In this document: one piece after another, positions 3,580-30,018 of the stretch | Numbering within the stretch: position 1 is the stretch's first letter | Layout: every line of letters begins with the position of its first letter | From: Phytohabitans maris | Lineage (GTDB): Bacteria; Actinomycetota; Actinomycetes; Mycobacteriales; Micromonosporaceae | NCBI RefSeq assembly: GCF_031085175.1 | Contig: NZ_JAVHUY010000075.1 | Coordinates: 1-33,065, forward strand | DNA length: 33,065 nt | Direction: 5' to 3' | Notes under the pieces: model-generated | The model's input: only the letters and a program-made list of their open reading frames with translations | Told to the model about the DNA's origin: nothing | Databases searched by the model: none | Made by a program: the position numbers and the translations under genes

Positions 3580-3588
3580 CCGGCCGGC

Positions 3589-4810: not shown

Positions 4811-4839
4811 AGTCTTGCCCTCGGGTGATCACGTGTCAA
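4811..4839 (-). promoter_or_regulatory. Putative promoter of the ABC importer-amidase operon
   Basis: On the minus strand TTGACA (4839-4834) is followed after 17 bases by AAGACT (4816-4811), about 60 bases upstream of the lipoprotein start. The -35 box is perfect and the -10 box is weak. The palindrome GTGATCAC (4825-4832) lies in the spacer and could be an operator. This would let the transporter and amidase be expressed apart from the upstream IclR-M20 pair. Confidence 0.5.
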
Positions 4840-4855
4840 GAGTTAAAATAGCGGT

Positions 4856-14158: not shown

Positions 14159-14188
14159 GCGTACGATGCTCGGCAGTGGACGGCCGGC

Positions 14189-14214
14189 GTACATCAGGGC
14201 GGTCCCTGATGTAC
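14189..14214. repeat. Perfect inverted repeat between divergent genes
   Basis: GTACATCAGGG (14189-14199) and CCCTGATGTAC (14204-14214) are perfect inverse copies separated by CGGT. Imperfect CGGCCG sequences extend the symmetry outward. The element lies between the GTPase-like gene and the receiver gene. It may be a shared operator. The arms also contain ATG start codons for both genes in mirror image. Confidence 0.85.
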
Positions 14215-14628: not shown

Positions 14629-15283
14629 GCGCGGCGGGTCGCAGGTAGGCGAGGACCGCGCGCACCCGCCGGTGGCTCTCCGGCTCGGGCGGCAGATCCA
14701 GGCGCAGGAAGATGCTGCGGACATGCGACTCCACCGTCTTCGGAGTCAGGAAGAGCCGGTCGCCGATCGCCTGGTTGGAGCGCCCCTCCGCCATCAGCGC
14801 CAGCACCTCCCGCTCGCGGGCGGTGAGCCGCTGCAACGGGTCGTCGCGCCGGCGGCCGGCCAGCATCAGCGAGACCACCTCGGGGTCGACCGCGCAGCCG
14901 CCGGAGGCGACCCGCCGGACCGCGTCGACGAAGTCGGCCGCGCCGCCGACCCGCTCCTTCAGCAGGTATCCGACGCCGCGCGCGCTGTCGCCGAGCAGGG
15001 TCGCCAGGTACCGCGACTCGAGGTACTGGGAGAGCACCAGCACGCCCACCTCGGGATAGGCGGCGCGGATCTCGATCGCCGCCTCCAGCCCTTCGAGGCG
15101 ATGCGTCGGCGGCATCCGTACGTCGACCACGGCCACGTCGGGCCGCGCCGAGGCAACCGCGTCGCGCAGTGCCCGCCGGTCCCCCACCTCCGCGACCACG
15201 TCGAACCCGTACTGCCGCAGCAGGACGCCGATCGCCGTGCGGACCAGCGCCGCGTCGTCGGCGAGTACGACCCTGGTCGTCAC
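14603..15283 (-). CDS. NarL/LuxR family response regulator
   Basis: The 226-residue protein has a receiver domain with the acidic pair in [10 protein letters not shown], phospho-acceptor D54 in [10 protein letters not shown] and the Lys in YLLKERV. A LuxR-type helix-turn-helix follows at about residues 150-195 ([27 protein letters not shown], then [13 protein letters not shown]). I chose GTG 15283 because AAGGAG lies 5 bases upstream; longer frames run into the kinase gene. It starts 10 bases after the end of the histidine kinase gene, so the two form a classical two-component pair. Its target genes are unknown. Confidence 0.92.
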
Positions 15284-15293
15284 ATCGGCTCCT

Positions 15294-17027
15294 TCACGCT
15301 CGCGCCGGCAGGACCGCGCAGACGGTCGTACCCCGTCCGGACTCGCTCCGCACGACCAGGTCGCCGTCGAGCGCCCGTACCCGGTCGGCCAGCCCGAGCA
15401 GTCCGGAGCCGGAGGCGACGGCCGCGCCACCGGTACCGTCGTCGTCCACCGCCACCCGGATCCCGCCCGGGTCGGGGAGGACGGTGACGCGGATCCGGTC
15501 GGCCTGGGCGTGCTTGACCGCGTTGGTCACCGCCTCGGCCACGACGAAGTAGGCGGTGGCCTCGACCGCCGGGGGCAGCCGGGGGATCTCGGCCGCCACC
15601 AGCTCGACCGGCGCCGGCACCCGCTCGACCAGCGACTGGAGGGCGGCGACCAGGCCATCCTCGCTCAGGATCGCCGGGTGTATGCCGCGGGCCAGCGACC
15701 GCAGGTCGGACAGGGCGGTGTCGAGCCCTTCGCCGCACGCCCGCAGCAGCACGCGTACCCCGTCGCCGGCCTCCGGGCCGAGCTGGCTCTCCACCGCGCG
15801 GATGCCGATCGCGGCCGCCACCACGTGCTGCTGCACGCCGTCGTGCAGGTCGCGCTCCATGCGGCGGCGCTCCTCGGTGATCGCGGTGACGATCCGCGCC
15901 CGGGACGCCCGCACCTCGCCCAGCTGCGCCCGCACCTCCGCGGTCAGCCGCTGGTTGTCCAGCGTCAGGCCGGCCGCCGCGGTCACCGCCCGCAGCACGT
16001 GCCCGTCCTCGCGGAGCGCCTCGTCGTGGATCAGCGCCGCGACCCGCTCCCCCGCGCGGTCCACATAGGTCACCGCCCGGCCACTGCCCGGTGCGGGCCG
16101 GGCGAGCGGCGCACCGGCCGCGTCGACCAGCTCGCCCGCGTCGGGCCGCCAGTATCCGATCTGGAGGGTGCGGTCGCCGAGGGCGGTGGCGAGGCGGTCG
16201 CGAAGCTGCGCCGGGGAGAGCGGCCGCTGCAGGTCGATGAGGAGCTCGGCGACCGCGGTCCGGCCCAGCCGGACCCGCAGGACCCCGGCGAGAAAGACCA
16301 GAGGCAGGACGCAAAAGGCCACCTGGTACACGGTGAGGGCGCCGAGCCGCACCGGATCGAACTGGTTGAACGCGTTGCCGGCCGCGGACGCGAGACCGCC
16401 GACGAGGAACGTGAGCAGCACCGGGCCGAGCAGCCGGCGCTGCGGTGGCGTAGCCCGCACCCACCGCCGGACGAGCACGACCACCACGGCGCCGGCCACC
16501 ACCGCGCCGATGGCGGCCACCGACGTGCTCACCGCGGACAGCATCGCCGGCGAGTCGACGTGCAGCAGGTTGCGCTGGTACGCCGGGCCGATGCCGGACA
16601 CGTCCTGGAAGAGCGCGCCGAACGGGGTCAGGCCGAACACCGCCACGTAGGCGGTGCCCACGAGCCAGCGCAGCGGCCGGGAGCCGAGCCGGCCGGCCGG
16701 GAACGCGAGCACGAGGTGGGCGAGGAAGCCGCTGGAGGCGGTGCTGAGCATGAGGCCGAGCGTGTGGGTCAGCGGGAACGGGACGAAGCGCACGTCCTCG
16801 GCGAACCAGCCGAGGCCGACAAGCACCATCAGCAGCCCGACCCGGTTGTCCGGCCGGCGGTGGTGGGCCACCGCGCCCGCGCCGAGGAAGAGCAGGCCAC
16901 TCACGCCGGTGAAGACGCTCTCCCCGACCGAATGCTCGGCGTCGGCCGCCTTGCACGGGAGCACCACGGCCGCGAGCAGCACGCCGGCGGCGACAAGCGG
17001 GTGCACCACGCCTCGCCCGGCCCTCAC
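15294..17027 (-). CDS. NarL-type membrane sensor histidine kinase
   Basis: The 577-residue kinase has a hydrophobic N-terminal half with about seven membrane segments and no large outside domain, so it may sense the membrane or a small ligand. A GAF-like linker region follows (residues about 290-370). The HisKA_3 dimerisation helix holds the phospho-His in [14 protein letters not shown], and the ATPase domain shows the N-box [13 protein letters not shown] and G-boxes VDDDGTGG and [11 protein letters not shown]. The start is a GTG at 17027, with GGGAGG directly next to it and so too close to be a normal ribosome site; the true start may be slightly inside. It is followed by its NarL-type partner. 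Together they form an envelope-responsive system of unknown stimulus. Confidence 0.92.
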
Positions 17028-19313: not shown

Positions 19314-19721
19314 TCAGGGCCGCCGGCGCCGATCGCGTCGACGGGCGGCCAGCGCACCGAGGAGCGCACCGAGCCAGAGGGCGGCGAGCCAGATCGCGAG
19401 GCCGGTGGCGTAGTCGCGGTCCTGCAGGCCGGGGTTGGGCGGGGCGGGACGCGGCCGCCACACCAGCGGGACGGCGATCAGCAGCAGGATCGCGCTCACC
19501 GTGAGGGCGCGCACCAGCCAGGTGCGGTAGGTGGGGTGCCGGACCAGCCGCCGCGCGGCGAGGCCGGTGAGCAGCACGAGCGGGGCGACGACCAGGTCGT
19601 GCAGGAGCGGCCCGGCGACGAGCCAGGTCCAGGCGGTGGGCAGCCGCGGCCAGAGCAGCCAGGCGCCGTAGCCGGCGAGGCCGGCACCGGTCGCCGCGAG
19701 CAGCGTACGGGCGGTCCTCAC
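19314..19721 (-). CDS. Small four-helix membrane protein
   Basis: The 135-residue product has about four hydrophobic segments, including TLLAATGAGLAGYGAWLLW, WTWLVAGPLLHDLVVAPLVLL and LTVSAILLLIAVPLVW, and a basic C-terminal tail. I do not recognise the family. The GTG at 19721 overlaps the stop of the molybdopterin oxidoreductase by 4 bases and has TGGAGG 7 bases upstream. As the last gene of a five-gene overlapping operon it may be a membrane partner of the heme/molybdenum enzyme. His-Asp in the second helix is notable but not diagnostic. Confidence 0.8.
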   Translation of the reverse strand: MRTARTLLAATGAGLAGYGAWLLWPRLPTAWTWLVAGPLLHDLVVAPLVLLTGLAARRLVRHPTYRTWLVRALTVSAILLLIAVPLVWRPRPAPPNPGLQDRDYATGLAIWLAALWLGALLGALAARRRDRRRRP

Positions 19722-20791
19722 GGCTGGACCTCCAGCCGGGTGACCCATTTCGTCTGCAGTACGCCGGGCCGGCTGGGCGCGATGACGCGGCAGGGGTAGC
19801 CGTGGTCGGGGCTGAGGGTCTGACCGTTGACCCGCAGGGCCAGCAGGGTCAGCGGGTCGGCGACGTGGGCCGGGGGCAGCAGGCTGGTCGCGTAGAGCCC
19901 GGCACGCTCCAATGAGGACACCCGGACCGGCCGGTCGGTGCGGGCGCCGGCCGCCACGAGCAGGTCGCGGACCGGCACGCCGGTCCACTCCGCCGTGGCG
20001 CTCCAGCCTTCCACGCAGGCGATCGGGAGCCGCGCCGTACGCTGGTCGAGCGCGGCCAGCTCGGCGAGGGTGAACGCGGCGCTCCCGCCCGGCCAGGCGA
20101 CGGTGAGCCGCCAGCCCTCCGGCACCTGGACGCCGGCCGCGGCGGCGGTGCGGTTGACCGGCAGCCCCTGCGGCCCGCCGGGCGAACGCCAGGCCAGCAC
20201 GGAGATCCGGCGCAGCACGGGTACGGTGACGCCGGCGGTGGCGAGCACGGCCGCGCCGGTCGCCAGCCACGTGGTCCGCAGGAAGGCGCGCCGTTCGGCG
20301 TCGGCGCGTTCGCCCCAGCCGGCGCGGATCCGGGGCAGCTTCACTGCGATGTGGACGACGAGGGCGCCGGCGGCGACCCAGCCGGCGGCGTAGTGGGTCT
20401 CGACGAAGAAGAACCGCCAGGGGTACGACTGGGCGACGTTGAACAGCCCGCTGGCGAGCTCGAAGAACGCGGCACAGACCAGTACCAGGATCGACAGCCG
20501 TTCGAGCGCGTCGGCCAGCAGCCGCGTCGGCCGCTCGAACAGTCGCGGGTACACGGCCCAGAGCTTCGCCAGCAGCAGCGGGATCGCCGCGATGCCGGAG
20601 AGGACGTGCACGCCCTGCGTGACGCGGTACAGGCTGACCGGCCGGGTGGGCCAGACGAACCAGCCCGGCGGGTGCTGGGCGGCGTGGCTGGCCAGCCCGG
20701 TGAGGAAGCAGAGCCCGAACGCGATGCCCAGCCACAGGCCGATCCGGGCGGAGACGGCCGGCGCGTGCACCGGCGAGCGGAAGAGCTTCAC
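19718..20791 (-). CDS. Membrane molybdopterin-dependent oxidoreductase with b561-like heme domain
   Basis: This 357-residue protein fuses two parts. Residues 1-195 hold about five membrane helices with histidines at 62, 133 and 147 that could bind heme b as in cytochrome b561-like proteins. Residues about 205-357 form a sulfite-oxidase-type molybdopterin domain with the likely Mo-binding Cys259 in PIACVEGWSATAEWTGVPV and the downstream DHGYPCRVIAP block. It should pass electrons between the membrane and an outside substrate, in either direction. The GTG at 20791 overlaps the methyltransferase stop by 4 bases. Unlike free sulfite oxidases or YedY, the heme and Mo parts are one chain here. The substrate is unknown; its place among glycosyltransferases suggests a role in modifying or repairing a surface product. 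Confidence 0.88.
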   Translation of the reverse strand: MKLFRSPVHAPAVSARIGLWLGIAFGLCFLTGLASHAAQHPPGWFVWPTRPVSLYRVTQGVHVLSGIAAIPLLLAKLWAVYPRLFERPTRLLADALERLSILVLVCAAFFELASGLFNVAQSYPWRFFFVETHYAAGWVAAGALVVHIAVKLPRIRAGWGERADAERRAFLRTTWLATGAAVLATAGVTVPVLRRISVLAWRSPGGPQGLPVNRTAAAAGVQVPEGWRLTVAWPGGSAAFTLAELAALDQRTARLPIACVEGWSATAEWTGVPVRDLLVAAGARTDRPVRVSSLERAGLYATSLLPPAHVADPLTLLALRVNGQTLSPDHGYPCRVIAPSRPGVLQTKWVTRLEVQP

Positions 20792-21393
20792 GGCCGCGCC
20801 AGCTCGGCGAACCAGCGGCCGTCGTGTTCGCTGACCGCTCGTAAGGTGAGTCCGGCGCGGGCCGCGACGGGTCCGACCGCCTCGACGCCGACCCGGGCCC
20901 AGGCGAACGCGGGCCCGGGCAGGAGCCGGGCGCTGCCGCGCCACAGGCCGGCACCCGGGGCGTCCACCTCGACGAGCACCGTGCCGCCCGGCCGCAGCAC
21001 CTGCGCGCAGCGGCGCAGCAGCGCGACCGGGTCGCCGCCGATGCCGATGTTGCCGTCGAGGAGCAGGGCGTGGGCCCAGCGGCCTTCGCCGGGCAGCGGG
21101 GCGAACACGCTGCGGCGCAGGGCGGCGGCGCCCCGGCGGCGGGCCAGGCGTACGGCCGCGGGGCAGGTGTCGATGCCGAGGGCGACGAGGCCGCGGCTGG
21201 CGAGCTCGGCGGCGGCCCGGCCGGGTCCGCAGCCGACGTCGAGCGCCGGGCCGGCGCAGCGGTCGAGCAGCGTACGGAGGGAGGGCTCGGCCGGCCCGTG
21301 CCAGCGACCGAGCGGGAGGCGGACCCGCTCGCCGCGCTCGTCGACGAGCCAGGTGGCCGGCCGTGCCGCGTACGCGGTGGCGAAGGCGGTCAT
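20788..21393 (-). CDS. SAM-dependent class I methyltransferase
   Basis: The 201-residue protein has the SAM-binding motif I ALDVGCGPGRAAAELASRG, followed by LGIDTCPAA and the VLRPGGTVLVEVDAPG strand, all typical of class I methyltransferases. Ahead of motif I is a 45-residue lid. The ATG at 21393 overlaps the DUF2064 gene stop by 4 bases, so it is co-translated in the glycosyltransferase operon. It lacks the cysteine set expected of arsenite methyltransferases. It may methylate a sugar or lipid made by the neighbouring enzymes; the acceptor cannot be told. Confidence 0.88.
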   Translation of the reverse strand: MTAFATAYAARPATWLVDERGERVRLPLGRWHGPAEPSLRTLLDRCAGPALDVGCGPGRAAAELASRGLVALGIDTCPAAVRLARRRGAAALRRSVFAPLPGEGRWAHALLLDGNIGIGGDPVALLRRCAQVLRPGGTVLVEVDAPGAGLWRGSARLLPGPAFAWARVGVEAVGPVAARAGLTLRAVSEHDGRWFAELARP

Positions 21394-22058
21394 CGCGGCA
21401 CCGCCGCCGCGCAGCCTGCGACCGCCGCCGCGAACCGGCCGTCCGGCGCGAGCCCGGCGACCGCCTCCGCGTCGCGCCAGGTGTCCACATCGGTCAGTGC
21501 CGGCGCCTCGGCCACGCGCAGGCCGCGTTCCACCAGCGCGGCGCGGGTCAGCCGCCCGGTGTCCGGTGTGGACATCGGGACGCCGGTGAGCGCGGGCGCG
21601 TACGACGGCGTACGCAGCCCCAGCAGCCACCACCCGCCGTCGGTGGCGGGGCCGAGGACCGCGTCCACATCGGAGAGTTGTTCGGCCGCGGCGGCCAGCA
21701 GGTCCGGGGTGACCTGGGGGGTGTCCATGCCGATCTGCAGCACCGGCCCGCCACCGGCGATCGCGGCGGCGCCGGCGTGCGCGAGCGCGAGCCGCTCGGC
21801 CAGGCCCTCGCCGCGCTGCGGGATCAGCCGCCACCCGGCCAGGGCGGCCCGGATCTCGCCCGACCGTTCGGCGGCGCGCAGCCGGCCGGCGTACGCGAGC
21901 ACGGGTGTGGCGCCGGGCGTGGCCCGGACCGCGGCGAGCGTGTCGAGCAGCGCCGCCGCCGCGACCGCGGCCGCCTGCCGGGGCGTGGCCGGCGGGCAGA
22001 GCCGGGTCTTGGCCAGCCCCGGCACCGGCGCCTTCGCCACCACGAGCAGGACGGTCAT
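21390..22058 (-). CDS. DUF2064/TIGR04282-like nucleotidyl- or glycosyltransferase
   Basis: The 222-residue protein belongs to the DUF2064 group, which has a nucleotide-sugar-transferase fold. Signs are the N terminus LLVVAKAPVPGLAKTRLCPP, the central LQIGMDTPQVTPDLL and the ATDGGWWLLGLRTPS block. Databases often label the group as linked to arsenosugars or to radical-SAM/selenodomain genes, but no such partner is seen here. The ATG at 22058 overlaps the upstream GT2 stop by 4 bases. Next to a GT2 enzyme, it probably provides or transfers an activated sugar. Confidence 0.88.
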   Translation of the reverse strand: MTVLLVVAKAPVPGLAKTRLCPPATPRQAAAVAAAALLDTLAAVRATPGATPVLAYAGRLRAAERSGEIRAALAGWRLIPQRGEGLAERLALAHAGAAAIAGGGPVLQIGMDTPQVTPDLLAAAAEQLSDVDAVLGPATDGGWWLLGLRTPSYAPALTGVPMSTPDTGRLTRAALVERGLRVAEAPALTDVDTWRDAEAVAGLAPDGRFAAAVAGCAAAVPR

Positions 22059-22711
22059 CGCAGCACCCCGGCCATGTCGCGGGCGGCGCGCAGGGTGCCG
22101 CGTACCGAACCGGACACTTTGGAGCGTGTGCCGGCCGCCCGCGCGTGGTAGGGGACGTCCACCTCGGCGATCCGCCACCCCGCCGCGCCGGCCCGCAGCA
22201 GGAGCTCGAGCGGGTACCCGAAGGCCCGGTCGGCGATCCCCAGGCCGAGCAGGTCGGCCCGCCGCCCGGCCCGGATCGGCGCGATGTCCCGCACCGGTAC
22301 CCCCCGGCGGCGCAGCAGTGCGGCGAGCAGCGCGTTGCCGGCGCGGGCGTGCCACGGCCACACGCCGCGCCCGGCCGGCACCCGGCGCCCGACCGCCAGG
22401 TCGGCGTCGCCGTCCCGCACCAGCGCCGCCAGCCGCGGCAGCGTACGCGGGTCGAGCGAGCCGTCCGCGTCGACGACGCAGACGATGTCCGCGGTGGCGG
22501 CCGCGAGGCCGGTGTGCACCGCGGCGCCGTAACCGCGCCGCGGCTCGTGCAGCACGAACGCGCCGAGCCCGGCGGCGACCCGCGGGGACCCGTCGGTCGA
22601 CCCGTTGTCGACGACGATGGGGCGAAACCCGGGCGGCATCGCGGCGAGCACGCCGGGCAGCGCCGCCGCCTCGTCGAGGCAGGGCAGAACCACGTCCACT
22701 GGACCGTCCAT
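22055..22711 (-). CDS. Family 2 glycosyltransferase
   Basis: This 218-residue GT-A protein has the GT2 motifs VVLPCLDEAAALPGVL, IVVDNGSTDGS and CVVDADGSLDPRTL, the last holding the DxD-like metal site. It has no membrane helices, unlike DPM/GtrB enzymes. It is the first gene of a five-gene minus-strand operon in which each start overlaps the previous stop by 4 bases. A TACAGT box 6 bases ahead of the ATG suggests a leaderless transcript, and GTAAGG direct repeats lie where the -35 box would be. The donor may be an NDP-sugar prepared by the neighbouring epimerase. Confidence 0.9.
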   Translation of the reverse strand: MDGPVDVVLPCLDEAAALPGVLAAMPPGFRPIVVDNGSTDGSPRVAAGLGAFVLHEPRRGYGAAVHTGLAAATADIVCVVDADGSLDPRTLPRLAALVRDGDADLAVGRRVPAGRGVWPWHARAGNALLAALLRRRGVPVRDIAPIRAGRRADLLGLGIADRAFGYPLELLLRAGAAGWRIAEVDVPYHARAAGTRSKVSGSVRGTLRAARDMAGVLR

Positions 22712-22745
22712 GCCCGCACTGTAGGTCGCTAGTGGACGGTCCGGC

Positions 22746-22780
22746 CCTTACGGAATCCTTACCGGCGCCGCACTTCTTAC
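22746..22780. promoter_or_regulatory. CCTTAC direct repeats between the divergent GT operon and membrane protein gene
   Basis: CCTTAC occurs at 22746-22751 and 22757-22762, exactly 11 bases apart as in OmpR/PhoB-type sites, with a third partial copy (CTTAC) at 22776-22780. They replace the -35 region of the minus-strand promoter, whose -10 is TACAGT (22723-22718). The OmpR-type regulator at 25313 is the likely binder. Confidence 0.55.
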
Positions 22781-22847
22781 GAACCGCTGACGGCTCTGGC
22801 CGGCGCCGCGCGCGGGACGGCGGTACCGGCTAGCGTGGGCCGCCACC

Positions 22848-24137
22848 ATGAGCAGAAACAGTCGTGCGGACATCGTCGTCGTCGCGGTCGAGGCCGGGTT
22901 GCTGGCCGCCGCGATCGGGGTGGGCGCGGTGCTGAACGCGCGCGGCGTCCGGTTGTGGGCGGACGCGGCGCCCCTGTTCGCGGTATGGCGGCCGCATGCC
23001 GGTTGGGGCACCCCGCTGGCGGTCGCGCTCGCCGCTCTCGTGGTCTGGCGCGGCCCGGCGTTGGCCCGGCGCGCGCCCTGGCCGTGGCTGCTGGCGGCCG
23101 GCTACGCCGGTACGGTCGGCTGGATCCTGTCGCTGGCGATGGTCGACGGCTGGTCCGGCGGGCTGGCGCAGCGGCTCACACCCCAGGCGGAGTACCTCAC
23201 CGAGGTCCCCCGGATCACCGACGTGGCGACCATGCTCGCCGGCTTCACCGACCGGATCGTGGATTTCCAGGCCGGTTCCTGGTCGACCCACACGGCCGGG
23301 CATCCCCCGGGCGCGCTGCTGGCCTTCGTCTGGCTCGACCGTGCCGGGCTCGGCGGTGGCGGGGCCGCCGCGCTGGCCTGCGTGCTGGTCGGGGCCACGG
23401 CGACGGTGAGCGTTCCGGCGGCGCTGCGGTGGCTGGGCGACGAGGGCGCCGCGCGGGCGGTCGTGCCGTTCCTCGTGCTGTTTCCCGGCGCCGTGTGGGT
23501 CGGCGCCTCGGCGGACGGCCTGTTCGCCGGCGTCGTCGCGGGCGGGCTGGCCCTTCTGGCCGCGCCCCGCTGGTGGTGCTGGCCGCTCGCCGGGCTGGCG
23601 CTGGGGTTCGCGCTCTACCTGTCGTACGGGTTCGTGCTCGTCGGGCCGCTCGCGCTGGCCGTCGTCGCGCTCCGCCGCCGGCACCGGGTCGCCGCCCTCA
23701 CCACCGCCGGCGCCGCCGTGCTGGGCGTCGCGGTCGCGTTCACCGCCGCGGGATTCCGGTGGTGGGACGGGTACCGGCTGGTCGTCGAGCGCTACTACCA
23801 GGGCTGGGCGGCCGACCGCCCGTACGGGTACTGGGTCTGGGCGAACCTGGCCGCGCTGCTGCTGTGCGCCGGACCGGTACTGGGCCCCGCGCTCCGCCGT
23901 ACCCTAGCGGAGGGTCGTGGGGCGGTGCGCTGGCTGCCGGTCGCGGCCGGCGCGGCGGTCCTCGCCGCGGACCTGTCCGGCCTGAGCAAGGCCGAGGTGG
24001 AGCGGATCTGGCTGCCGTTCGCGCTCTGGCTACTGGTGGCGACGGCCGCGCTGCCCGCCGCGCGGCGCCGCGCCTGGCTGCTCGCCCAGGCCGCCGTCGC
24101 GCTGGCCGTCAACCACCTGGTGTGGACCTGGTGGTGA
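22848..24137 (+). CDS. Polytopic membrane protein, probable GT-C type glycosyltransferase
   Basis: The 429-residue protein has about ten or more membrane segments. Between the early ones lies a loop with EYLTEVPRITDV and a STHTAGHPPGALLAFVW block that resembles the outside catalytic loop of GT-C mannosyltransferase-like proteins; the acidic residues in it could bind the lipid-linked sugar. There is no clear Pfam-level match I can name with certainty. ATG 22848 lies 12 bases after a TAGCGT box, so the leader is very short. The gene diverges from the GT2 operon and its last 29 bases overlap the end of the epimerase gene on the other strand. It probably uses a lipid-linked sugar at the outer membrane face. 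Confidence 0.82.
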   Translation: MSRNSRADIVVVAVEAGLLAAAIGVGAVLNARGVRLWADAAPLFAVWRPHAGWGTPLAVALAALVVWRGPALARRAPWPWLLAAGYAGTVGWILSLAMVDGWSGGLAQRLTPQAEYLTEVPRITDVATMLAGFTDRIVDFQAGSWSTHTAGHPPGALLAFVWLDRAGLGGGGAAALACVLVGATATVSVPAALRWLGDEGAARAVVPFLVLFPGAVWVGASADGLFAGVVAGGLALLAAPRWWCWPLAGLALGFALYLSYGFVLVGPLALAVVALRRRHRVAALTTAGAAVLGVAVAFTAAGFRWWDGYRLVVERYYQGWAADRPYGYWVWANLAALLLCAGPVLGPALRRTLAEGRGAVRWLPVAAGAAVLAADLSGLSKAEVERIWLPFALWLLVATAALPAARRRAWLLAQAAVALAVNHLVWTWW

Positions 24138-25221
24138 CCGGCCGCTCGCGGTCGGGGCGGCCCCGGACCCGGGCGGGCTCGCGCAGCGGCGCGGTGGCGA
24201 AGGCCGCCACGCCCTCCGTGAAGCCCGTCCCGGCGCGGAAGCCCAGCAGGCGCGCGGCCAGTTCCGGGGAGGCCACCACGTGCCGGACGTCGGCCGCCCG
24301 GGCCCCGCCGACCACCAGCGGCGCCGGGCCGCCCATCGCCTCGGCCAGCACGCGGGCCAGATCGCCGACCGTGTGCGGCTCGCCGGAGCAGACGTTGACC
24401 GCCGCGAACCCGGCCTCCGGCGCCGGCGCGTCCAGGGCCAGCAGGTTGGCCCGGGCCACGTCCGAGACGTGCACGAAGTCGCGGCGCTGCCGGCCGTCCT
24501 CCAGTACCCGGGGCGCGTGCCCGCGGGCCAGCGCCGACCGGAAGATCGACGCGACGCCGGCGTACGGCGTGTCCCGGGGCATCCGCGGGCCGTACACGTT
24601 GTGGTAGCGCAGCGCCCACACCGCGCCGCCGGTCTGCGCCGCCCACGCCGCCGCGTAGTGCTCCTGGGCGACCTTGCTGGCCGCGTAGAGGCTGCGCGGG
24701 CGGAGCGGCGCGTCCTCCGGCACCAGGCCGGGCTGGAGCGTCGCGCCGCAGCGCGGGCACGCCGGGTCGAACCGGCCGGCCGCGATGTCCGCCGGCTGGC
24801 GGGGCGCGGGCGGCACGATGCCGTGCGCCGGGCACGTGTACCGGCCTTCGCCGTAGACCACCATCGAGCTGGCGAGCACGAGCCGCGGTACCCGCGCGGC
24901 GTGCATGGCGGCCAGCAGCACCGCCGTGGCGTGGTCGTTGTGGCTGGCGTACCCGGGGGCGTCGGACGGGTCGAGGCCGTGCCCCACCATCGCCGCCTGG
25001 TGGCAGACCGCGTCGACGCCGCGCAGCAGCCGGGCGAGCAGGTCGCCGTCCCGGGCGTCACCGCGTACCAGCCGGTGCCGCGCGCACCAGGGCGGCGGCT
25101 CGTCGCCGTGCGCCTGCGGCAGCAGCGCGTCCAGCAGCAGCACCTCGTGACCGGCCCCGGCCAGGACGTCGGCGGCATGGGAGCCGACGAACCCGGCGCC
25201 GCCGGTGATCAGCACACGCAC
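24109..25221 (-). CDS. NAD-dependent epimerase, dTDP-L-rhamnose 4-epimerase-like
   Basis: This 370-residue extended SDR starts at GTG with the NAD motif TGGAGFVGSH and has the catalytic SSMVVYGEG Ser and Y179xxxK183 (YAASK). Between them is an insertion with C130, H133, C155 and C158 (TCPAHG ... CPRCG), a zinc-ribbon-like set. As I recall, dTDP-L-rhamnose 4-epimerases (WbiB type) carry the same insertion, so dTDP-6-deoxy-L-talose may be the product. The length fits that group. It is encoded opposite the OmpR-type regulator gene, across 91 bases with GTAAGG boxes. It would supply an activated deoxy-sugar to the glycosyltransferases nearby. NDP-sugar specificity is inferred. Confidence 0.85.
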   Translation of the reverse strand: MRVLITGGAGFVGSHAADVLAGAGHEVLLLDALLPQAHGDEPPPWCARHRLVRGDARDGDLLARLLRGVDAVCHQAAMVGHGLDPSDAPGYASHNDHATAVLLAAMHAARVPRLVLASSMVVYGEGRYTCPAHGIVPPAPRQPADIAAGRFDPACPRCGATLQPGLVPEDAPLRPRSLYAASKVAQEHYAAAWAAQTGGAVWALRYHNVYGPRMPRDTPYAGVASIFRSALARGHAPRVLEDGRQRRDFVHVSDVARANLLALDAPAPEAGFAAVNVCSGEPHTVGDLARVLAEAMGGPAPLVVGGARAADVRHVVASPELAARLLGFRAGTGFTEGVAAFATAPLREPARVRGRPDRERPVTTRSTPGG

Positions 25222-25230
25222 ACCGCCACG

Positions 25231-25268
25231 GTAAGGGCGCGGCGAGCCGGAGCGGCCGTGCCGTAAGG
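25231..25268. promoter_or_regulatory. GTAAGG boxes ahead of the regulator and epimerase genes
   Basis: GTAAGG (the inverse of CCTTAC) occurs at 25231-25236 and 25263-25268, 32 bases or about three helical turns apart. A TAGCCT box (25300-25305) ends 7 bases before the regulator ATG, pointing to a leaderless transcript. Shared boxes with 22746-22780 suggest autoregulation and one regulon. Confidence 0.45.
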
Positions 25269-25312
25269 CTTTCGAAATACCTTTCCGGACCCCGCCGGCT
25301 AGCCTGAGGACG

Positions 25313-26002
25313 ATGGGACAACGGGTGCTCGTGGTCGACGACGACCCGACGATCAGCGACGTGGTCTGCCGCTACCTGCGGCGGGCCGGCTTCGACGTCA
25401 GCATGGCCGGCGACGGCGTGGCCGCCCTGGCCACCGTCGCCCGCGAGGCGCCCGACCTGGTGGTGCTCGACCTGATGCTGCCGGGGATCGACGGGCTCGA
25501 AGTGTGCCGGCGGCTGCGCACCCGCCCGGACGGCGTGCCGATCGTCATGCTCACCGCGCTCGGCGAGGAGGCCGACCGGGTGCTCGGGCTGCGGCTCGGC
25601 GCCGACGACTACGTCACCAAGCCGTTCTCGCCGCGCGAGCTGGTGCTCCGCGTGCAGTCGGTGCTGCGCCGGGCCGGTGCGGACTCCGCCCCCTCCGGCG
25701 CCCCGCTCGTCGACGGCGACCTGGCGGTCGACGAGGCCCGGCGGGTCGCGCGCCTGCGGGACGCCGAGCTCACCTTGACGGTACGGGAGTTCGACCTGCT
25801 CGCCTTCCTGATGCGCCACCCCGGCCAGGCCTTCCGCCGGGACGATCTGCTGGAACGGGTGTGGGGCTGGAACTTCGGCGACCAGTCCACTGTGACCGTC
25901 CACGTACGACGGTTGCGGGAGAAGGTCGAGGACGACCCGGCCGCCCCGCGCCGGATCGTCACCGTGTGGGGCGTCGGCTACCGGTACGAGCCGGCCGGAT
26001 GA
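25313..26002 (+). CDS. OmpR/PhoB family response regulator
   Basis: The 229-residue protein has a receiver domain with acidic pair D10-D11, phospho-acceptor D53 (VVLDLMLPG) and conserved Lys in YVTKPFSP. A winged helix follows at about residues 135-225 (LTVREFDLLAFLMRHPGQAF and TVTVHVRRLREKVEDDP). ATG 25313 lies 7 bases after a TAGCCT box, so the message may be leaderless. The kinase gene begins 1 base after its stop. It probably controls the sugar-modification genes on both sides via the GTAAGG/CCTTAC boxes. Confidence 0.95.
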   Translation: MGQRVLVVDDDPTISDVVCRYLRRAGFDVSMAGDGVAALATVAREAPDLVVLDLMLPGIDGLEVCRRLRTRPDGVPIVMLTALGEEADRVLGLRLGADDYVTKPFSPRELVLRVQSVLRRAGADSAPSGAPLVDGDLAVDEARRVARLRDAELTLTVREFDLLAFLMRHPGQAFRRDDLLERVWGWNFGDQSTVTVHVRRLREKVEDDPAAPRRIVTVWGVGYRYEPAG

Positions 26003-26003
26003 C

Positions 26004-27026
26004 GTGCGCGACCTGCTGCTGATATTCGGTGCGGCGCTGGCCGGCGCGCTCGCGGTCGGCGGGCTCGGCGCGGCCGCGCTCCGGCTGCTGAGCGGCCGCA
26101 CCATCATGGCCCACATCTGGGTGCTGATCGCGGTGACCGTCGGCAGCGTGACGGCCGGCGTCGTGGTCATCGCCCAGGCCATGTTCCTGTCCCCGCACGA
26201 CCTGCAGGTGGTGCTGATCACCGTGGCCGCCGGCGCGGTGGTCAGCGTCGCGGTCAGCTGGCTGTTCGGGCGCCGGCTCGCCGCCGCCGCGATGTGGGCC
26301 GCGCAGGCCCGCGAGCGGGAACGGCGACTGGAGAAGGGCCGCCGCGACCTGGTCGCCTGGGTCTCGCACGACCTGCGCACCCCGCTCGCCGGGCTGCGGG
26401 CGATGGCGGAGGCCCTCGAAGACAAGGTGGTGCACGACCCGGCCACGGTCGCCGACTACCACCGGCGGATCCGGGTGGAGACCGACCGCATGACCCAGCT
26501 CGTCGACGACCTGTTCGAGCTGTCCCGGATCAACGCCGGCGCCCTGCGGCTGTCGCCGTCCACGGTGCCGCTCGGCGACGTGGTCTCGGACGCGGTCGCC
26601 GCCACCACGCCGATCGCCGACACCCGCCGGATCCGGTTGGTGACGGCCGAGTCGCGCTGGCCGGCCGTGCTGGCCAGCGAGCCGGAGCTGACCCGCGTGG
26701 TGGCCAACCTCCTGCTCAACGCCGTGCGGTACACCCCGGAGGACGGCACGGTGTGGGTCAGCGGCGGCAACGACCGCGACGGTGCCTGGCTCGCGGTCGC
26801 CGACACGTGCGGCGGCATCCCCGAGGCCGACCTGCCCCGGGTGTTCGACGTGGCGTTCCGGGGCGAGCGGGCCCGCACCCCGCGCCCCGTCGACGGGCCG
26901 GTCGGCGGGCTCGGGCTGGCGATCGTCCGCGGCCTGGTCGAGGCGCACGGCGGCCGGGTCGACGTGCACAACATCCCGAACGGCTGCCGCTTCGTCGTGC
27001 ACCTGCCCGCCCCGGGCTCACGGTGA
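26004..27026 (+). CDS. Sensor histidine kinase
   Basis: The 340-residue kinase has two membrane helices (about residues 4-28 and 36-60) with almost no outside loop, then a third hydrophobic stretch near 67-87. The HisKA motif VSHDLRTPLAG carries H122. The ATPase domain has NLLLNAVRYTPEDG, VADTCGGIPEADL (the usual DxGxG is DTCGG) and GGLGLAIVRGLVEAHGG. The GTG start at 26004 is 1 base after the regulator stop. The small sensor region suggests it detects a membrane signal. Its TGA stop lies inside a long hairpin. Confidence 0.93.
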   Translation: MRDLLLIFGAALAGALAVGGLGAAALRLLSGRTIMAHIWVLIAVTVGSVTAGVVVIAQAMFLSPHDLQVVLITVAAGAVVSVAVSWLFGRRLAAAAMWAAQARERERRLEKGRRDLVAWVSHDLRTPLAGLRAMAEALEDKVVHDPATVADYHRRIRVETDRMTQLVDDLFELSRINAGALRLSPSTVPLGDVVSDAVAATTPIADTRRIRLVTAESRWPAVLASEPELTRVVANLLLNAVRYTPEDGTVWVSGGNDRDGAWLAVADTCGGIPEADLPRVFDVAFRGERARTPRPVDGPVGGLGLAIVRGLVEAHGGRVDVHNIPNGCRFVVHLPAPGSR

Positions 27027-27097: not shown

Positions 27098-27685
27098 CTA
27101 GCTGGCGACCAGCGTGGCGTAGTCGGCGGCGGTGGCCGGAGCCTCGGAGAGGGAACCGTCGGCGCGGGGTACGCCGACCGGCTGGCCGCCGCGGGTGAAC
27201 GACACCGCGGTCAGGCCGGGCATGGCGGTCAGCGTGCAGACGATCTGGGCGAAGGCGAGGATCTGGTCGGTACGGCCGGTCTCGTCCAGGGCGGCGGTCA
27301 GGTCGACCGTGGCGTGGCCGCCGGCCAGCCGGACGCCGACGACGATGTCGTTGCCGAGCAGGGCGCTGGTGAGGCCGTCGCGCTTTTCGGCGTCGGTGGG
27401 GCCGGCGAGCAGGTCGTCGAGGAGCTCGTCGAGGGTGGGCTGCGCGTGGACGTTGCGGGTGACTGCGACGAGCTCGCTGCCGCGCACCAGGTACAGGCGT
27501 TCCGGTACGGCGCCGGCGCCCGGGTCGGCGTGCGGGGGTGTCTCGGTCGCCCAGGCGTGCGACACCCCGTTGGGCGGGTCGACCGCCCGCGGTACGTCCT
27601 CGGCCTGGACGCCGCAGCCGGCGACGGCGACCGCGAGCAGCGGCGCCAGCGCGGCGGCGCGGCGAGACCGGGGCGCCCGGCTCAC
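27098..27685 (-). CDS. GerMN-domain lipoprotein
   Basis: The 195-residue product has a lipoprotein signal ending in AVAVAGCG, with lipidation at C24. The mature part is one GerMN-type domain: RLYLVRGSELVAVTRNV, TLDELLDDLLAGPTDAEKRDGLTSAL, and LAFAQIVCTLTAMPGLTAVSF. GerMN domains occur in spore germination proteins and in LpqB of the MtrAB system. The GTG at 27685 overlaps the kinase stop by 4 bases. It is much smaller than LpqB and lacks the beta-propeller half. It probably tunes the kinase next to it from outside the membrane. Confidence 0.9.
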   Translation of the reverse strand: MSRAPRSRRAAALAPLLAVAVAGCGVQAEDVPRAVDPPNGVSHAWATETPPHADPGAGAVPERLYLVRGSELVAVTRNVHAQPTLDELLDDLLAGPTDAEKRDGLTSALLGNDIVVGVRLAGGHATVDLTAALDETGRTDQILAFAQIVCTLTAMPGLTAVSFTRGGQPVGVPRADGSLSEAPATAADYATLVAS

Positions 27686-29031
27686 GGTTCGGTCCTGGGC
27701 ACCTCGACCCGGAAGCGGGCGCCGCCGCCGGGCCGGTCGGCCACCGTCACCCGCCCGCCGTGGGCGTTGGCGTGCCGGGCCACGAGGGCGAGGCCGAGAC
27801 CGGTGCCGTCGCTGTCGCCGCGCGCGCTGGCGGCCCGGCCGCGCACGAACCGGTCGAAGATCGCCGTCCGGTCCTCCGGCCGGACGCCCGGGCCCTCGTC
27901 GTCCACTTCCAGGACGAAGGCGTCCGGTGTCTGGCCGAGGCGTACGGCGGTCGCACCGCCGCCGTGCCGGTCCGCGTTGTCGAGGAGGTTGCCCAGGATC
28001 TGGGTGAAGCGGCGCCGGTCGACCGGCCACGTCCCCGCGCCGTCGACCCGCACCAGGTCGGCCGGGAGCCCGCGGGCCTGGCACTCCTCGCGCGCCAGCT
28101 CGGCGACGTCGACCGGTGCGCGCTGTGCCGGCTGGTCGTCGCGGGCCAGCTCCAGCAGGTCGGTGACGAGCCGCTGGAACCGGGCCACCTCGTCGGAGAG
28201 GAGGGTGACCGCGGTCGCCGCCCGGTCGTCCAGCCGGGTCCGGTGCCGGTCCAGCACGCTCGTCGCGGCGGAGAGCGTCTGCAACGGCGAGCGCAGCTCG
28301 TGGCTGACGTCGGCGGCGAACCGGCGGTCCCGTTCCAGCCGGGTCGAGAGCTGGTCCACCATCTCGTTGAACGACGTCGTCAGCCGTTCCAGATCCGGCT
28401 CGGTCGCCGGGTCGAGGCGGGCGCTGAGGTCACCGGCGGTGATCTCGCGCGCGGCGGCGGTGACGGTGTCGAGCGGGCGCAGCACCCGGCGGGTCAGGTA
28501 CCAGCCGAAGCCGGCCCCGGCCGCGGTGGTGCTCGCCGCGACCAGGGTGAGCACCAGGGCGAGGGTGCTCAGCGTCTGGTCGAGCTCGCGCATCGAGTCG
28601 ATGACGTAGAAGCCGGACGACGAGGGCAGCGGAACGCCGACGACCACGGCGGGGCCGCTGTCGGTGTCGACCCGCTGCATGCCGAGCCTGCCCTGCTCGA
28701 CGAGGCCTCGCAGGCCGGGCGGGATGGCGTCGGTCAGGCCGGCGTCCGCGGCCCGGGCGTACCACCGGCCGTCGCGGTGCAGCAGCGCGCGGCGGGTGCT
28801 GCCGGTGTTGAGGGTGCGAAGTATGCCGGGGATGTCGGGTCGTTCGGTGGCCAGGCCGGCGTGCACCACGCCCGCGTCCAGGTAGGCCGAGCGCAGGGCG
28901 CTGCGCTCCCGGCCGGCCATCAGCGCCTGGCTGGTGAAGCCGTAGGAGAGCGCGGCCATCGACGCGGACAGCGCGAAGGCGCCGGCGGCGAACGCGGCGG
29001 CGACCCGGGTGCGCAGGCCAGGACGCCTCAT
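27682..29031 (-). CDS. MtrB/BaeS-like sensor histidine kinase with HAMP domain
   Basis: This 449-residue kinase has a first membrane helix near residues 10-30, an outside sensor region of about 115 residues, a second helix (about 153-178) and a HAMP domain (LTRRVLRPLDTVTAAAREITAGDLSAR). H244 lies in the HisKA motif DVSHELRSPL. The ATPase domain has ILGNLLDNADRHG, VDDEGPGV and DGTGLGLALVARHANAHGG. The ATG at 29031 overlaps the regulator stop by 4 bases, and its own stop overlaps the GerMN lipoprotein start. The three genes make a regulator-kinase-lipoprotein unit like mtrA-mtrB-lpqB. Confidence 0.94.
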   Translation of the reverse strand: MRRPGLRTRVAAAFAAGAFALSASMAALSYGFTSQALMAGRERSALRSAYLDAGVVHAGLATERPDIPGILRTLNTGSTRRALLHRDGRWYARAADAGLTDAIPPGLRGLVEQGRLGMQRVDTDSGPAVVVGVPLPSSSGFYVIDSMRELDQTLSTLALVLTLVAASTTAAGAGFGWYLTRRVLRPLDTVTAAAREITAGDLSARLDPATEPDLERLTTSFNEMVDQLSTRLERDRRFAADVSHELRSPLQTLSAATSVLDRHRTRLDDRAATAVTLLSDEVARFQRLVTDLLELARDDQPAQRAPVDVAELAREECQARGLPADLVRVDGAGTWPVDRRRFTQILGNLLDNADRHGGGATAVRLGQTPDAFVLEVDDEGPGVRPEDRTAIFDRFVRGRAASARGDSDGTGLGLALVARHANAHGGRVTVADRPGGGARFRVEVPRTEP

Positions 29032-29705
29032 CGCTGCAGCTTGTAGCCCATGCCGCGGACCGTCACCAGGTGCCGCGGCGCGGCCGGGTCGTCCTCGATC
29101 TTCTGCCGCAGCCGCCCGATGTGCACGTCGACCAGGCGCTCGTCCCCGTACGCGTACTCCCAGACCCGCTCCAGCAGCTGGGCCCGGGACAGTACCCGAC
29201 CGGGGTGCTCGGCCAGCTCGCACAGCAGCCGGAACTCGGTGCGGGTCACCGCCACCGGCTCGCCGCGCACGGCGACCTCGCCCGCTTCGGGGCGGATCTC
29301 CAGGTCGCCGAAGACCAGCGCGGTCACGGCGGCGACGCTGCTGGCCCGGGCCCGGCGGCGCAGTGCCCGCAGCCGCGCGGAGAGCTCCTTCACCGCCACC
29401 GGCTTGACCAGGTAGTCGTCGGCGCCGGCCTCCAGCGCGGCCACGATGTCGTGCGTGTCGTCGCGGGCGCTGACCACCACGATCGGCACGTCGTCGCGGG
29501 CACGCAGCTGCCGGATGCACTCGTAGCCGTCGACGCCGGGCAGCATCAGGTCGACCAGGACCGTGTCGGCCGGCGAGCGCCGCTGCTCCCGCAGCCCCTC
29601 CTCGGCCGTCGCCGTGCCCCGGACCGTGTACCCCTCGTCTTCCAGGCCGAGCGTCAACGACAGCCGGATCCGGTCGTCGTCTTCGATCAGCAGCACCTGC
29701 TCCAT
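29028..29705 (-). CDS. OmpR/MtrA-like response regulator
   Basis: The 225-residue protein has a receiver domain (acidic residues 8-10, D52 in LVDLMLPGVDG, Lys in YLVKPVAVK) and a C-terminal winged helix (VTRTEFRLLCELAEHPGRVL and LVDVHIGRLRQKIEDDP). I chose ATG 29705, which starts MEQVLLIEDD; longer frames add a sequence unlike any receiver. No strong ribosome site is seen, so initiation may be leaderless or weak. It heads a three-gene operon with its kinase and a GerMN lipoprotein. A TGTCATG direct repeat 60-80 bases upstream may be its own binding site. Confidence 0.93.
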   Translation of the reverse strand: MEQVLLIEDDDRIRLSLTLGLEDEGYTVRGTATAEEGLREQRRSPADTVLVDLMLPGVDGYECIRQLRARDDVPIVVVSARDDTHDIVAALEAGADDYLVKPVAVKELSARLRALRRRARASSVAAVTALVFGDLEIRPEAGEVAVRGEPVAVTRTEFRLLCELAEHPGRVLSRAQLLERVWEYAYGDERLVDVHIGRLRQKIEDDPAAPRHLVTVRGMGYKLQR

Positions 29706-29765
29706 CACCAAATCATGCCCAGCCGCCCGCCCGCGGGCCGCCCGGGGCCGGTGGCACGAGCGGTT

Positions 29766-29783
29766 TGTCATGGGACTGTCATG
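29766..29783. promoter_or_regulatory. TGTCATG direct repeat, candidate response regulator site
   Basis: TGTCATGGGACTGTCATG places two TGTCATG copies 11 bases apart, the usual spacing for OmpR-family binding. CGGTTT and AAACCG flank it as an inverted pair (29761-29766, 29784-29789). It is 61-78 bases upstream of the regulator ATG. Autoregulation is the simplest reading. Confidence 0.5.
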
Positions 29784-30018
29784 AAACCGCGGAGGTACCG
29801 CCATGGGCCGGTCAGAGGCTGGACGGGCCGAGATCACCACGCCCACCCCCGGCGGTAGCCGCCGACACTTCCCATAGCGTTTTCGAGAACCGCTCCGGAA
29901 ATGGCCGGCAGCGGTATATTGGCATTGCCACAAAAGACCGGACGCGCCAGCATCGTCCATTAGGGCAACGCTTCCGGATCAACGAATAAATGCAATTCTT
30001 GCTTAAGAAAAACACCAT

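What the first reader, a model, noticed from the sequence alone, without database searches (positions are those of the whole stretch)
19314..27026. Candidate new system: molybdo-heme membrane enzyme embedded in a regulated glycosylation locus
Five minus-strand genes with successive 4-base overlaps join a GT2 enzyme, a DUF2064 transferase, a methyltransferase, a one-chain b561-like/sulfite-oxidase-type enzyme and a small membrane protein. A probable GT-C membrane protein, a dTDP-rhamnose-4-epimerase-like enzyme and an OmpR-type two-component pair sit directly beside them. Tight coupling of a redox molybdoenzyme with sugar transfer is not a pathway I know. A possible reading is a surface glycan or glycolipid that is methylated and oxidised or repaired outside the membrane under control of the sensor.
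Basis: partly seen in the sequence, partly recalled or inferred. Interest (0 to 1): 0.75.

Follow-up and report, generated by a model that had tools for sequence, protein, structure and literature searches.

The report
Methylthio-sugar locus with molybdenum repair enzyme
A gene cluster conserved across many soil actinobacteria appears to put a sulfur-containing sugar, known so far from the surface of the tuberculosis bacterium, on the cell surface, and it carries its own membrane molybdenum enzyme that probably turns that sugar back after it has been oxidised.

Summary
Five overlapping minus-strand genes (GT2, DUF2064, methyltransferase, heme-molybdenum enzyme, small membrane protein) sit beside a GT-C enzyme, an NAD-dependent epimerase and an OmpR-type two-component pair. 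The cluster is conserved. In mycobacteria the cluster lies between menA and menE, next to methylthioadenosine phosphorylase. This matches the Rv0535-Rv0541c region (order partly recalled), which makes the methylthioxylose (MTX) cap of lipoarabinomannan. The molybdenum enzyme belongs to the published Sco3746 family, function unknown. MTX also occurs as its sulfoxide MSX. My reading: the locus makes a methylthio-pentofuranose cap outside the membrane, and the enzyme reduces the sulfoxide back with quinol electrons. Shown: gene content, conservation, conserved Mo-site and Tat residues, predicted folds, a shared promoter element. Inferred: sugar, substrate, direction. Against: 26 of 131 DUF2064 genomes lack a strong phosphorylase match, and the acceptor glycan here is unknown.

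The parts
19314..19721 (-). small membrane protein (135 aa, four hydrophobic stretches by eye); probably an accessory of the heme-Moco enzyme
   Evidence: GTGA overlap with the Moco gene; found with the Moco gene in 57 of 80 loci, including L058 (truncated), L070, L078, L079 and L082 where no GT2 was found; invariant R5 G12 D42 P85 in 20 sequences
19718..20791 (-). heme b / molybdenum-cofactor oxidoreductase, one chain, Sco3746 family; proposed MSX (methylsulfinyl sugar) reductase
   Evidence: PF00174; in 21 of 21 sequences C259, H330, R335, K348, R167-R168, H36, H62, H133 and H147 are invariant; AlphaFold model of five long helices then a SUOX-type domain
20788..21393 (-). class I SAM-dependent methyltransferase, substrate unknown
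   Evidence: PF13649/PF08241; in 64 of 80 loci
21390..22058 (-). DUF2064, CofC/NTP-transferase-like; proposed to activate methylthio-pentose-1-phosphate to an NDP-sugar
   Evidence: PF09837 105 bits; TIGR04282 127.8 bits, below its cut-off of 134; solved relative 3cgx; invariant K9, K17, T18, R19, D112, D140, D190, D192 in 20 sequences
22055..22711 (-). GT2 of dolichyl-phosphate-mannose-synthase type; MtxS-like polyprenyl-phosphate sugar synthase
   Evidence: PF00535; best solved match DPMS 5mlz E 1.3e-7; D35, D81, D83, R191, S197, K198 invariant in 44 sequences
22746..22791 (-). candidate response-regulator site: GTCAGCGGTTCGTAAG...GGTAAGGATTCCGTAAG between the divergent GT2 and GT-C genes
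   Evidence: read; GTAAG in 44 of 66 GT2 upstream regions against 3.3% of random windows; a strict 11-base tandem in only 6 of 66
22848..24137 (+). GT-C membrane glycosyltransferase, MtxT-like
   Evidence: AlphaFold pLDDT 89.4; Foldseek best ArnT (E 6.5e-3, probability 1.00), with PimE, ALG12 and AftA also listed; no match with E <= 0.001; in 58 of 80 loci
24109..25221 (-). NAD-dependent sugar epimerase (SDR, Y179-x3-K183); proposed ribo-to-xylo epimerase
   Evidence: PF01370 161.6 bits; in 62 of 80 loci; starts at or within about 70 bases of the end of MTA phosphorylase in 25 of the 30 loci that hold the latter (coordinates)
25230..25268 (+). GGTAAGG and CCGTAAGG in the epimerase/RR intergenic region, candidate sites of the same regulator
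   Evidence: read; GTAAG in 14 of 63 RR upstream regions against 3.3%
25313..26002 (+). OmpR-family response regulator
   Evidence: PF00072 and PF00486; in 54 of 80 loci
26004..27026 (+). membrane sensor histidine kinase without a large outside domain (by eye)
   Evidence: PF00512 and PF02518; in 53 of 80 loci

Best explanation
The locus makes and maintains a 5-methylthio-pentofuranose cap (methylthioxylose, MTX, or a close relative) on a surface glycan. Proposed steps: (1) methylthioadenosine phosphorylase, encoded elsewhere in this genome, gives 5-methylthioribose-1-phosphate. (2) DUF2064 activates it to a nucleotide sugar and the epimerase sets the xylo configuration. (3) The GT2 puts it on polyprenyl phosphate inside. 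(4) It is flipped and the GT-C transfers it to the glycan outside. (5) Oxidants turn the thioether into the sulfoxide (MSX). (6) The Tat-exported heme-Moco enzyme, fed through its membrane hemes from menaquinol, reduces MSX back to MTX. The OmpR-type pair controls the cluster through GTAAG repeats. Shown: genes, conservation, conserved cofactor and Tat residues, predicted folds, shared promoter element. Inferred: sugar, order of steps 2-3, substrate and direction of step 6, regulator binding, roles of the methyltransferase and small protein.
For: DUF2064 and the close heme-Moco enzyme: 113 of 296 class genomes have both, 18 DUF2064 only, 2 Moco only, 163 neither; within 5 kb in 95 and within 20 kb in 100 of 113. 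In 61 nearer relatives: 33 both, 7 DUF2064 only, 0 Moco only, 21 neither; in the window's own genus 3 genomes have both and 3 neither. MTA phosphorylase is in the fetched flanks of 30 of 80 named loci, lies within 20 kb of DUF2064 in 51 of 104 genomes having both, and has a strong match in 105 of 131 DUF2064 genomes against 42 of 165 others. This genome has it on another contig, 302 bits against a cut-off of 274.85. Mycobacterial loci read menA-MTAP-epimerase-HK/RR-GT2-DUF2064-methyltransferase-(Moco)-GT-C-menE-pitA. Strands and order fit Rv0535 (MTA phosphorylase, a cited title), MtxS Rv0539 and MtxT Rv0541c. MTX uses MTA, a decaprenyl-phosphate donor and a GT-C. MSX is found with MTX on LAM. 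A cited title reports 'a natural carbohydrate substrate' of methionine sulfoxide reductase A. The Moco domain has the SUOX-type fold and the protein has the traits of the Tat-exported Sco3746 family. Reduction is favoured on recalled potentials (menaquinone near -74 mV, sulfoxide/thioether near +160 mV).
Against: 26 of 131 DUF2064 genomes lack a strong MTA phosphorylase match. Some of those loci carry another GT-C-like protein (cluster 8), so the sugar or acceptor may differ. 18 of 131 genomes have DUF2064 but no close Moco enzyme, so it is not essential; in 13 of 113 genomes with both, the two are not within 20 kb, and 14 of 80 named loci show no GT2 in the fetched flanks, some of them cut by contig ends. 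If all 148 genomes with a Moco match at E<=1e-10 are counted, the table becomes 120 both, 11, 28, 137 (own count). The methyltransferase has no place in the known MTX route. I have no evidence that this host makes lipoarabinomannan. MtxS and MtxT sequences could not be fetched, so orthology rests on synteny. MSX could in part form during isolation (own knowledge). No assay of any Sco3746-family enzyme is known to me.
Confidence: 0.55

Rival explanations
1. Same methylthio-sugar pathway, but the heme-Moco enzyme works in the other direction: it oxidises MTX to MSX on purpose and passes electrons to the respiratory chain.
For: The best solved matches by sequence and fold are mostly sulfite oxidases and dehydrogenases. 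MSX-bearing ions were abundant on LAM (passage).
Against: Thioether oxidation with menaquinone as acceptor is uphill on recalled potentials. MsrP, in the same fold, is a reductase (passage).
Confidence: 0.15
2. The pathway adds a different polyprenyl-phosphate-linked sugar; methylthioadenosine phosphorylase sits nearby only in some lineages, and the Moco enzyme modifies that other sugar or repairs oxidised methionines of the glycosylated proteins.
For: 26 of 131 genomes lack a strong MTA phosphorylase match. The methyltransferase is unexplained. GT2 and DUF2064 are generic. Five of seven fetched loci from genomes without the phosphorylase carry another GT-C-like protein.
Against: MTA phosphorylase is 20 kb or less from DUF2064 in 51 of 104 genomes, in several families. 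The syntenic mycobacterial locus is assigned to MTX.
Confidence: 0.2
3. The Moco enzyme is an ordinary respiratory sulfite or methionine-sulfoxide enzyme that merely travels with the cluster.
For: SUOX family; sulfite dehydrogenase and MsrP models match weakly.
Against: The SoxC, MsrP, SorA and SorT cut-offs are missed by a wide margin. Co-occurrence with DUF2064 is 113 of 115. The genome has three other PF00174 matches for general duties.
Confidence: 0.1

Closest known systems
Methylthioxylose (MTX) capping pathway of Mycobacterium tuberculosis lipoarabinomannan (MtxS Rv0539, MtxT Rv0541c, MTA phosphorylase Rv0535)
   Same: GT2 plus GT-C plus DUF2064 plus epimerase plus MTA phosphorylase in the expected order and strands in mycobacterial relatives of this locus; extracytoplasmic GT-C with a polyprenyl-phosphate donor
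   Different: Here a methyltransferase, a heme-Moco enzyme, a small membrane protein and a two-component pair are added (what the tuberculosis locus holds besides the named genes is recalled, not seen); the nearest named locus is from Micromonospora; MTA phosphorylase lies elsewhere in the genome; acceptor unknown
Sco3746 family of dual Sec-Tat heme-Moco membrane proteins (Tooke et al. 2017, PMC5449189, passages read)
   Same: Five membrane helices, twin arginine directly before helix 5, membrane histidines, C-terminal Moco domain
   Different: No function or gene context is given in the passages read ('operon' and 'glycosyl' occur 0 times in the main text); here the context is supplied
MsrPQ periplasmic methionine sulfoxide reductase
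   Same: SUOX-type fold with heme b membrane partner; proposed sulfoxide reduction outside the membrane
   Different: One fused chain; MsrP model scores 37.4 bits against a cut-off of 207; proposed substrate is a sugar sulfoxide
Three-component pentofuranose systems (Kelly et al. 2024, PMC11127046, passages read)
   Same: Polyprenyl-phosphate pentofuranose donor and GT-C outside the membrane
   Different: Those start from PRPP; MTX starts from methylthioadenosine

Membership tests
MTX (MtxS/MtxT) pathway | MTA phosphorylase to supply methylthioribose-1-phosphate | tested here: met
   Present in this genome over the TIGR01694 cut-off, on another contig; in the flanks of 30 of 80 related loci; but no strong match in 26 of 131 DUF2064 genomes
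MTX (MtxS/MtxT) pathway | GT2 polyprenyl-phosphate sugar synthase | tested here: met
   DPMS-type GT2 with invariant D81, D83, R191, S197, K198; activity not tested
MTX (MtxS/MtxT) pathway | GT-C transferase | tested here: met
   AlphaFold and Foldseek; best E 6.5e-3; the top 20 are GT-C type glycosyltransferases or complexes that hold one (by their titles)
MTX (MtxS/MtxT) pathway | Same neighbourhood as Rv0535-Rv0541c (menA ... menE) | tested here: met
   Met in mycobacterial relatives L072, L125, L132, not in the window itself; the Rv numbers of menA, menE and pitA are recalled
MTX (MtxS/MtxT) pathway | Direct sequence match to Rv0539 and Rv0541c | not tested
MTX (MtxS/MtxT) pathway | MTX present on a glycan of the host | not testable with these tools
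   needs chemistry
Sco3746 heme-Moco family | Five helices, twin arginine before helix 5 | tested here: met
   Helices 11-39, 53-84, 92-120, 129-159, 165-186; R167-R168 in 21 of 21
Sco3746 heme-Moco family | Heme histidines and Moco ligands | tested here: met
   H36, H62, H133, H147, C259, H330, R335, K348 in 21 of 21; their roles are recalled from SUOX or taken from the paper, not shown
Sco3746 heme-Moco family | Tat-dependent export | not testable with these tools
   shown for Sco3746 by reporters
MsrP | NCBIfam MsrP model above cut-off | tested here: not met
   37.4 against 207 bits
Sulfite oxidase / dehydrogenase | NCBIfam SoxC, SorA, SorT models and the C-terminal dimerisation domain | tested here: not met
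   47.8, 27.4 and 22.7 bits against 420, 600 and 570; only PF00174 found in Pfam and the chain ends with that domain
Arsenosugar pair TIGR04282/TIGR04283 | both models above cut-off | tested here: not met
   127.8 against 134, and 40 against 182

The most novel reading that the evidence does not exclude
Actinobacteria carry a rechargeable antioxidant coat: a thioether sugar on the envelope takes up oxidants by becoming a sulfoxide, and a dedicated Tat-exported heme-molybdenum enzyme restores it with electrons from the respiratory quinol pool, the whole cycle being under a dedicated two-component system. To my knowledge this would be the first enzyme dedicated to repairing an oxidised glycan outside the membrane, and it would give the Sco3746 family its function.
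Probability: 0.3. Interest if true: 0.9.

Novelty: new variant of a known kind. Interest (0 to 1): 0.72.

Why it matters
It joins three separate loose ends: a molybdo-enzyme family with no function (Sco3746), the sulfoxide form of methylthioxylose on lipoarabinomannan, and the steps between methylthioadenosine and the lipid-linked sugar that I could not find assigned. It predicts methylthio-pentose caps far outside the tuberculosis group, in Micromonospora, Amycolatopsis, Nocardioides, Streptomyces and others, and it gives a direct test in harmless laboratory strains. If the enzyme reduces MSX, glycan repair outside the membrane becomes a real activity, coupled to respiration.

Tried and rejected
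Arsenosugar biosynthesis (the NCBI name of TIGR04282/04283): both scores are below cut-off, and no ArsM/ArsS-like gene caught my eye among the conserved neighbours listed (no family search for them was run). dTDP-rhamnose 4-epimerase: the epimerase matches many SDR epimerases and no model passes its cut-off. Canonical MsrP or sulfite oxidase: see the membership test. PruR pterin-binding proteins share the compact fold (7kom), but C259, H330, R335 and K348 are invariant in 21 of 21 here; that PruR lacks the cysteine is recalled. The small membrane protein as the flippase: set aside because it follows the Moco gene, not the GT genes; the flippase is unidentified. Nucleosidase plus MTR kinase as the source where MTA phosphorylase is missing: not supported in 24 genomes, 21 of the 26 without a strong phosphorylase match plus the window's genome, G196 and G095. 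A replacement sulfoxide reductase in loci without the Moco enzyme: I read the ORF lists of five loci by eye and saw none; no family search was run on them.

Papers: DUF2064 with molybdopterin and glycosyltransferase, 0 papers; DUF2064 or TIGR04282, 2 papers, listing only; lipoarabinomannan, molybdopterin, methylthio and sulfoxide reductase, 18 papers with at least 3 of the 4 terms, 10 listed, none of those 10 holding both lipoarabinomannan and molybdopterin. Angala 2017 and a review are not held, so MTX chemistry comes from citing papers. Of all papers opened I saw only passages found by search terms.

Counting limits: the 115 Moco genomes are those in the listed rows (down to about 9e-29). 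The other 33 of 148 genomes with E<=1e-10 had best matches of 3.4e-19 or weaker and were dropped before the 2x2 count; with them it would be 120 both, 11 DUF2064 only, 28 Moco only, 137 neither. MTA phosphorylase counts use the listed rows (E<=1.8e-70) plus G209 from its genome table. The 80 named loci are the best 80 of 590 confirmed, some cut by contig ends (57 of 80 are at least 18 kb).


Full report
The first-stage observation holds at its coordinates. GT2 (22055-22711), DUF2064 (21390-22058), a methyltransferase (20788-21393), a molybdenum-cofactor enzyme (19718-20791) and a small membrane protein (19314-19721) run on the minus strand and overlap by 4 bases each. Pfam confirms PF00535, PF09837, PF13649/PF08241 and PF00174. 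A membrane protein at 22848-24137 has no Pfam hit, but its model (pLDDT 89.4) matches GT-C enzymes, with ArnT first (E 6.5e-3, probability 1.00) and PimE, ALG12 and AftA in the list; no match reaches E 0.001. The epimerase at 24109-25221 is a general NAD-dependent SDR. An OmpR-type regulator and a kinase follow at 25313-27026.

The cluster is conserved. From a molybdo-enzyme alignment of 21 sequences I fetched 80 named loci, the best of 590. They hold GT2 in 66, DUF2064 66, methyltransferase 64, epimerase 62, GT-C 58, small protein 57, RR 54 and HK 53 of 80; the neighbouring PEBP gene was found in none at 35 bits. The hosts span Micromonospora, Kutzneria, Amycolatopsis, Lentzea, Mycolicibacterium, Nocardia, Nocardioides, Kitasatospora and Streptomyces. 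In 14 of 80 no GT2 lies in the fetched flanks, in part because contigs end.

The two lie within 5 kb in 95 and within 20 kb in 100 of 113. Counting also the 33 genomes with weaker Moco matches (3.4e-19 at best) would give 120, 11, 28 and 137. A second set of 61 nearer relatives, sharing 5 genomes with the first, gives 33 both, 7 DUF2064 only, 0 enzyme only, 21 neither; within the window's genus 3 have both and 3 neither. So the enzyme belongs to this pathway and tends to be gained and lost with it, though 18 of 131 genomes do without a close relative.

What the pathway is came from unbiased clustering of neighbouring ORFs: an MTA phosphorylase appears in the flanks of 28 loci, or 30 of 80 by tblastn, and family models confirm three of them as examples. 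In 25 of the 30 it ends where the epimerase gene begins (coordinates). Across the 296 genomes it lies within 20 kb of DUF2064 in 51 of 104 genomes having both; chance would give about 1% (inference from genome size). A strong match is present in 105 of 131 DUF2064 genomes against 42 of 165 others. The window's genome has it on another contig.

In mycobacteria the order is menA, MTA phosphorylase, epimerase, a monooxygenase-like gene, HK/RR, GT2, DUF2064, methyltransferase, (Moco enzyme, small protein), GT-C, menE, pitA. This is the order and orientation of the Rv0534c-Rv0545c region as I recall it. From papers: Rv0535 is the MTA phosphorylase (title in a reference list), Rv0539 is MtxS making MTX-P-C50, and Rv0541c is MtxT adding MTX to the mannose caps of lipoarabinomannan (figure legend). 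MTX uses MTA as starting donor, a decaprenyl-phosphate intermediate and an extracytoplasmic GT-C (passage). In another (L132) the Moco gene is divergent (37% identity) and turned round.

The molybdo-enzyme belongs to a published family. Sco3746 has five membrane helices, a twin arginine before helix 5, heme histidines and a C-terminal Moco domain, is assembled by Sec and Tat, and has relatives across actinobacteria and beyond; the passages give no function, and the words operon and glycosyl do not occur in the main text. The window protein has five helices, R167-R168 at the start of the fifth, and invariant H36, H62, H133, H147, C259, H330, R335 and K348 in 21 of 21. Its domain matches sulfite oxidase (1sox, E 1.7e-8), entry 1xdq (E 1.2e-7; YedY/MsrP as I recall) and the compact PruR proteins. 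It misses the cut-offs of SoxC, MsrP, SorA and SorT. In S. coelicolor the neighbours fit: SCO3740/SCO3741 are an unnamed kinase/OmpR regulator pair (table) and SCO3744 is listed as a putative methyltransferase (table).

Why a molybdo-enzyme here? The product sugar carries a thioether. MTX occurs on lipoarabinomannan together with its sulfoxide MSX, by NMR and mass spectrometry (passages); part of it might form during isolation (own knowledge). Anti-oxidative properties of MTX have been proposed (passage). A cited paper, seen only by its title, reports a natural carbohydrate substrate for methionine sulfoxide reductase A. MsrA is cytosolic (recalled), while MSX is outside. A Tat-exported SUOX-type enzyme with its own membrane hemes, encoded in the MTX-type locus, is the natural candidate for reducing MSX outside. 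Direction: with menaquinone near -74 mV and sulfoxide/thioether near +160 mV (both recalled), reduction is downhill. This step is inference.

Roles of the other parts. DUF2064 resembles CofC and the solved nucleotide-diphospho-sugar transferase 3cgx with invariant basic and acidic residues, so activation of methylthio-pentose-1-phosphate fits the need of a DPMS-type GT2 for a nucleotide sugar. The epimerase fits the ribo-to-xylo change. The small protein follows the Moco gene, also in loci where no GT2 was found. The methyltransferase stays unexplained.

Regulation. GT2 upstream regions carry GTAAG: 44 of 66 have it within 180 bases, against 3.3% of 6,600 random windows from the same loci; RR upstream regions have it in 14 of 63. 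In the window the repeat GGTAAGGATTCCGTAAG has an 11-base period, but a strict 11-base tandem is in only 6 of 66. The mycobacterial and some Nocardia loci that I printed show a GTCA-type repeat instead (by eye), and their regulators are more divergent (50-54% identity against 57-83%). This makes control by the neighbouring pair likely; binding is not shown.

Results against. 26 of 131 DUF2064 genomes show no strong MTA phosphorylase. In the 24 genomes tested (21 of the 26, plus three controls) the MTA nucleosidase model passes its cut-off in 0 and MTR kinase in 3. Six loci, five of them from genomes without MTA phosphorylase, share another membrane protein that looks by eye like a different GT-C (cluster 8). 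So in some lineages the sugar source, or the sugar, may differ. The acceptor in this organism is unknown, and a review passage says it is not apparent whether even non-tuberculous mycobacteria carry MTX.

Verdict: the finding is real and its general interpretation is partly right. The glycan pathway is a known kind, methylthioxylose capping, in a wider and enlarged form. The new element is the closely associated heme-molybdenum enzyme, best read as a sulfoxide reductase for the sugar. Nothing that I saw in the listings and passages and the papers opened makes this link; not every listed paper was opened.

Noticed in passing
L116, L117, L118, L119, L122, L134 (cluster 8): Loci of one family (f19) share another multi-span membrane protein with a GT-C-like DD motif (by eye) near the cluster; five of the six genomes lack a strong MTA phosphorylase match. 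A sister pathway with another donor or acceptor is possible.
   Followed up: partly
GT2 upstream regions of L060, L063, L066, L072, L103, L098, L075, L087: Mycobacterial and Nocardia loci carry GTCA-n6-TCGTCA-like repeats (by eye) where others carry GTAAG, and their response regulators are more divergent: a candidate case of regulator and site changing together.
   Followed up: partly
L123 (G161) 1328-5092: In one genome with GT2-DUF2064-methyltransferase but no close Moco enzyme, ORFs that look by eye like MobA, MoaA and MoeA lie 1-5 kb from the GT-C gene.
   Followed up: no
L039, L041, L042, L045, L046, L053, L054, L059 (cluster 19): A MoaB/MogA-like molybdopterin gene (by eye) lies right beside the epimerase gene in 8 of 80 loci; an MscL-like gene (cluster 12, 12 loci) is often next to it.
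   Followed up: no
L039-L061, about 11.5-14.9 kb (cluster 11): An HtrA/trypsin-like serine protease (by eye) lies downstream of the small membrane protein in 12 of 80 loci.
   Followed up: no
L072 4312-5442 and ten other mycobacterial loci (cluster 13): A nitronate-monooxygenase/FabK-like gene is conserved between the epimerase and the kinase in 11 mycobacterial loci.
   Followed up: no
window 24109-25221: The epimerase carries a CPRCG stretch and other cysteines in an insertion before its YxxxK motif, perhaps a metal site.
   Followed up: no
window 14176-17027 and 27682-29960: Two more sets of signalling genes (regulators with a kinase; a second OmpR-type pair; by eye) lie close to the locus.
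   Followed up: no
window 31601-32944: Transposase-like ORF (by eye) near the end of the window.
   Followed up: no
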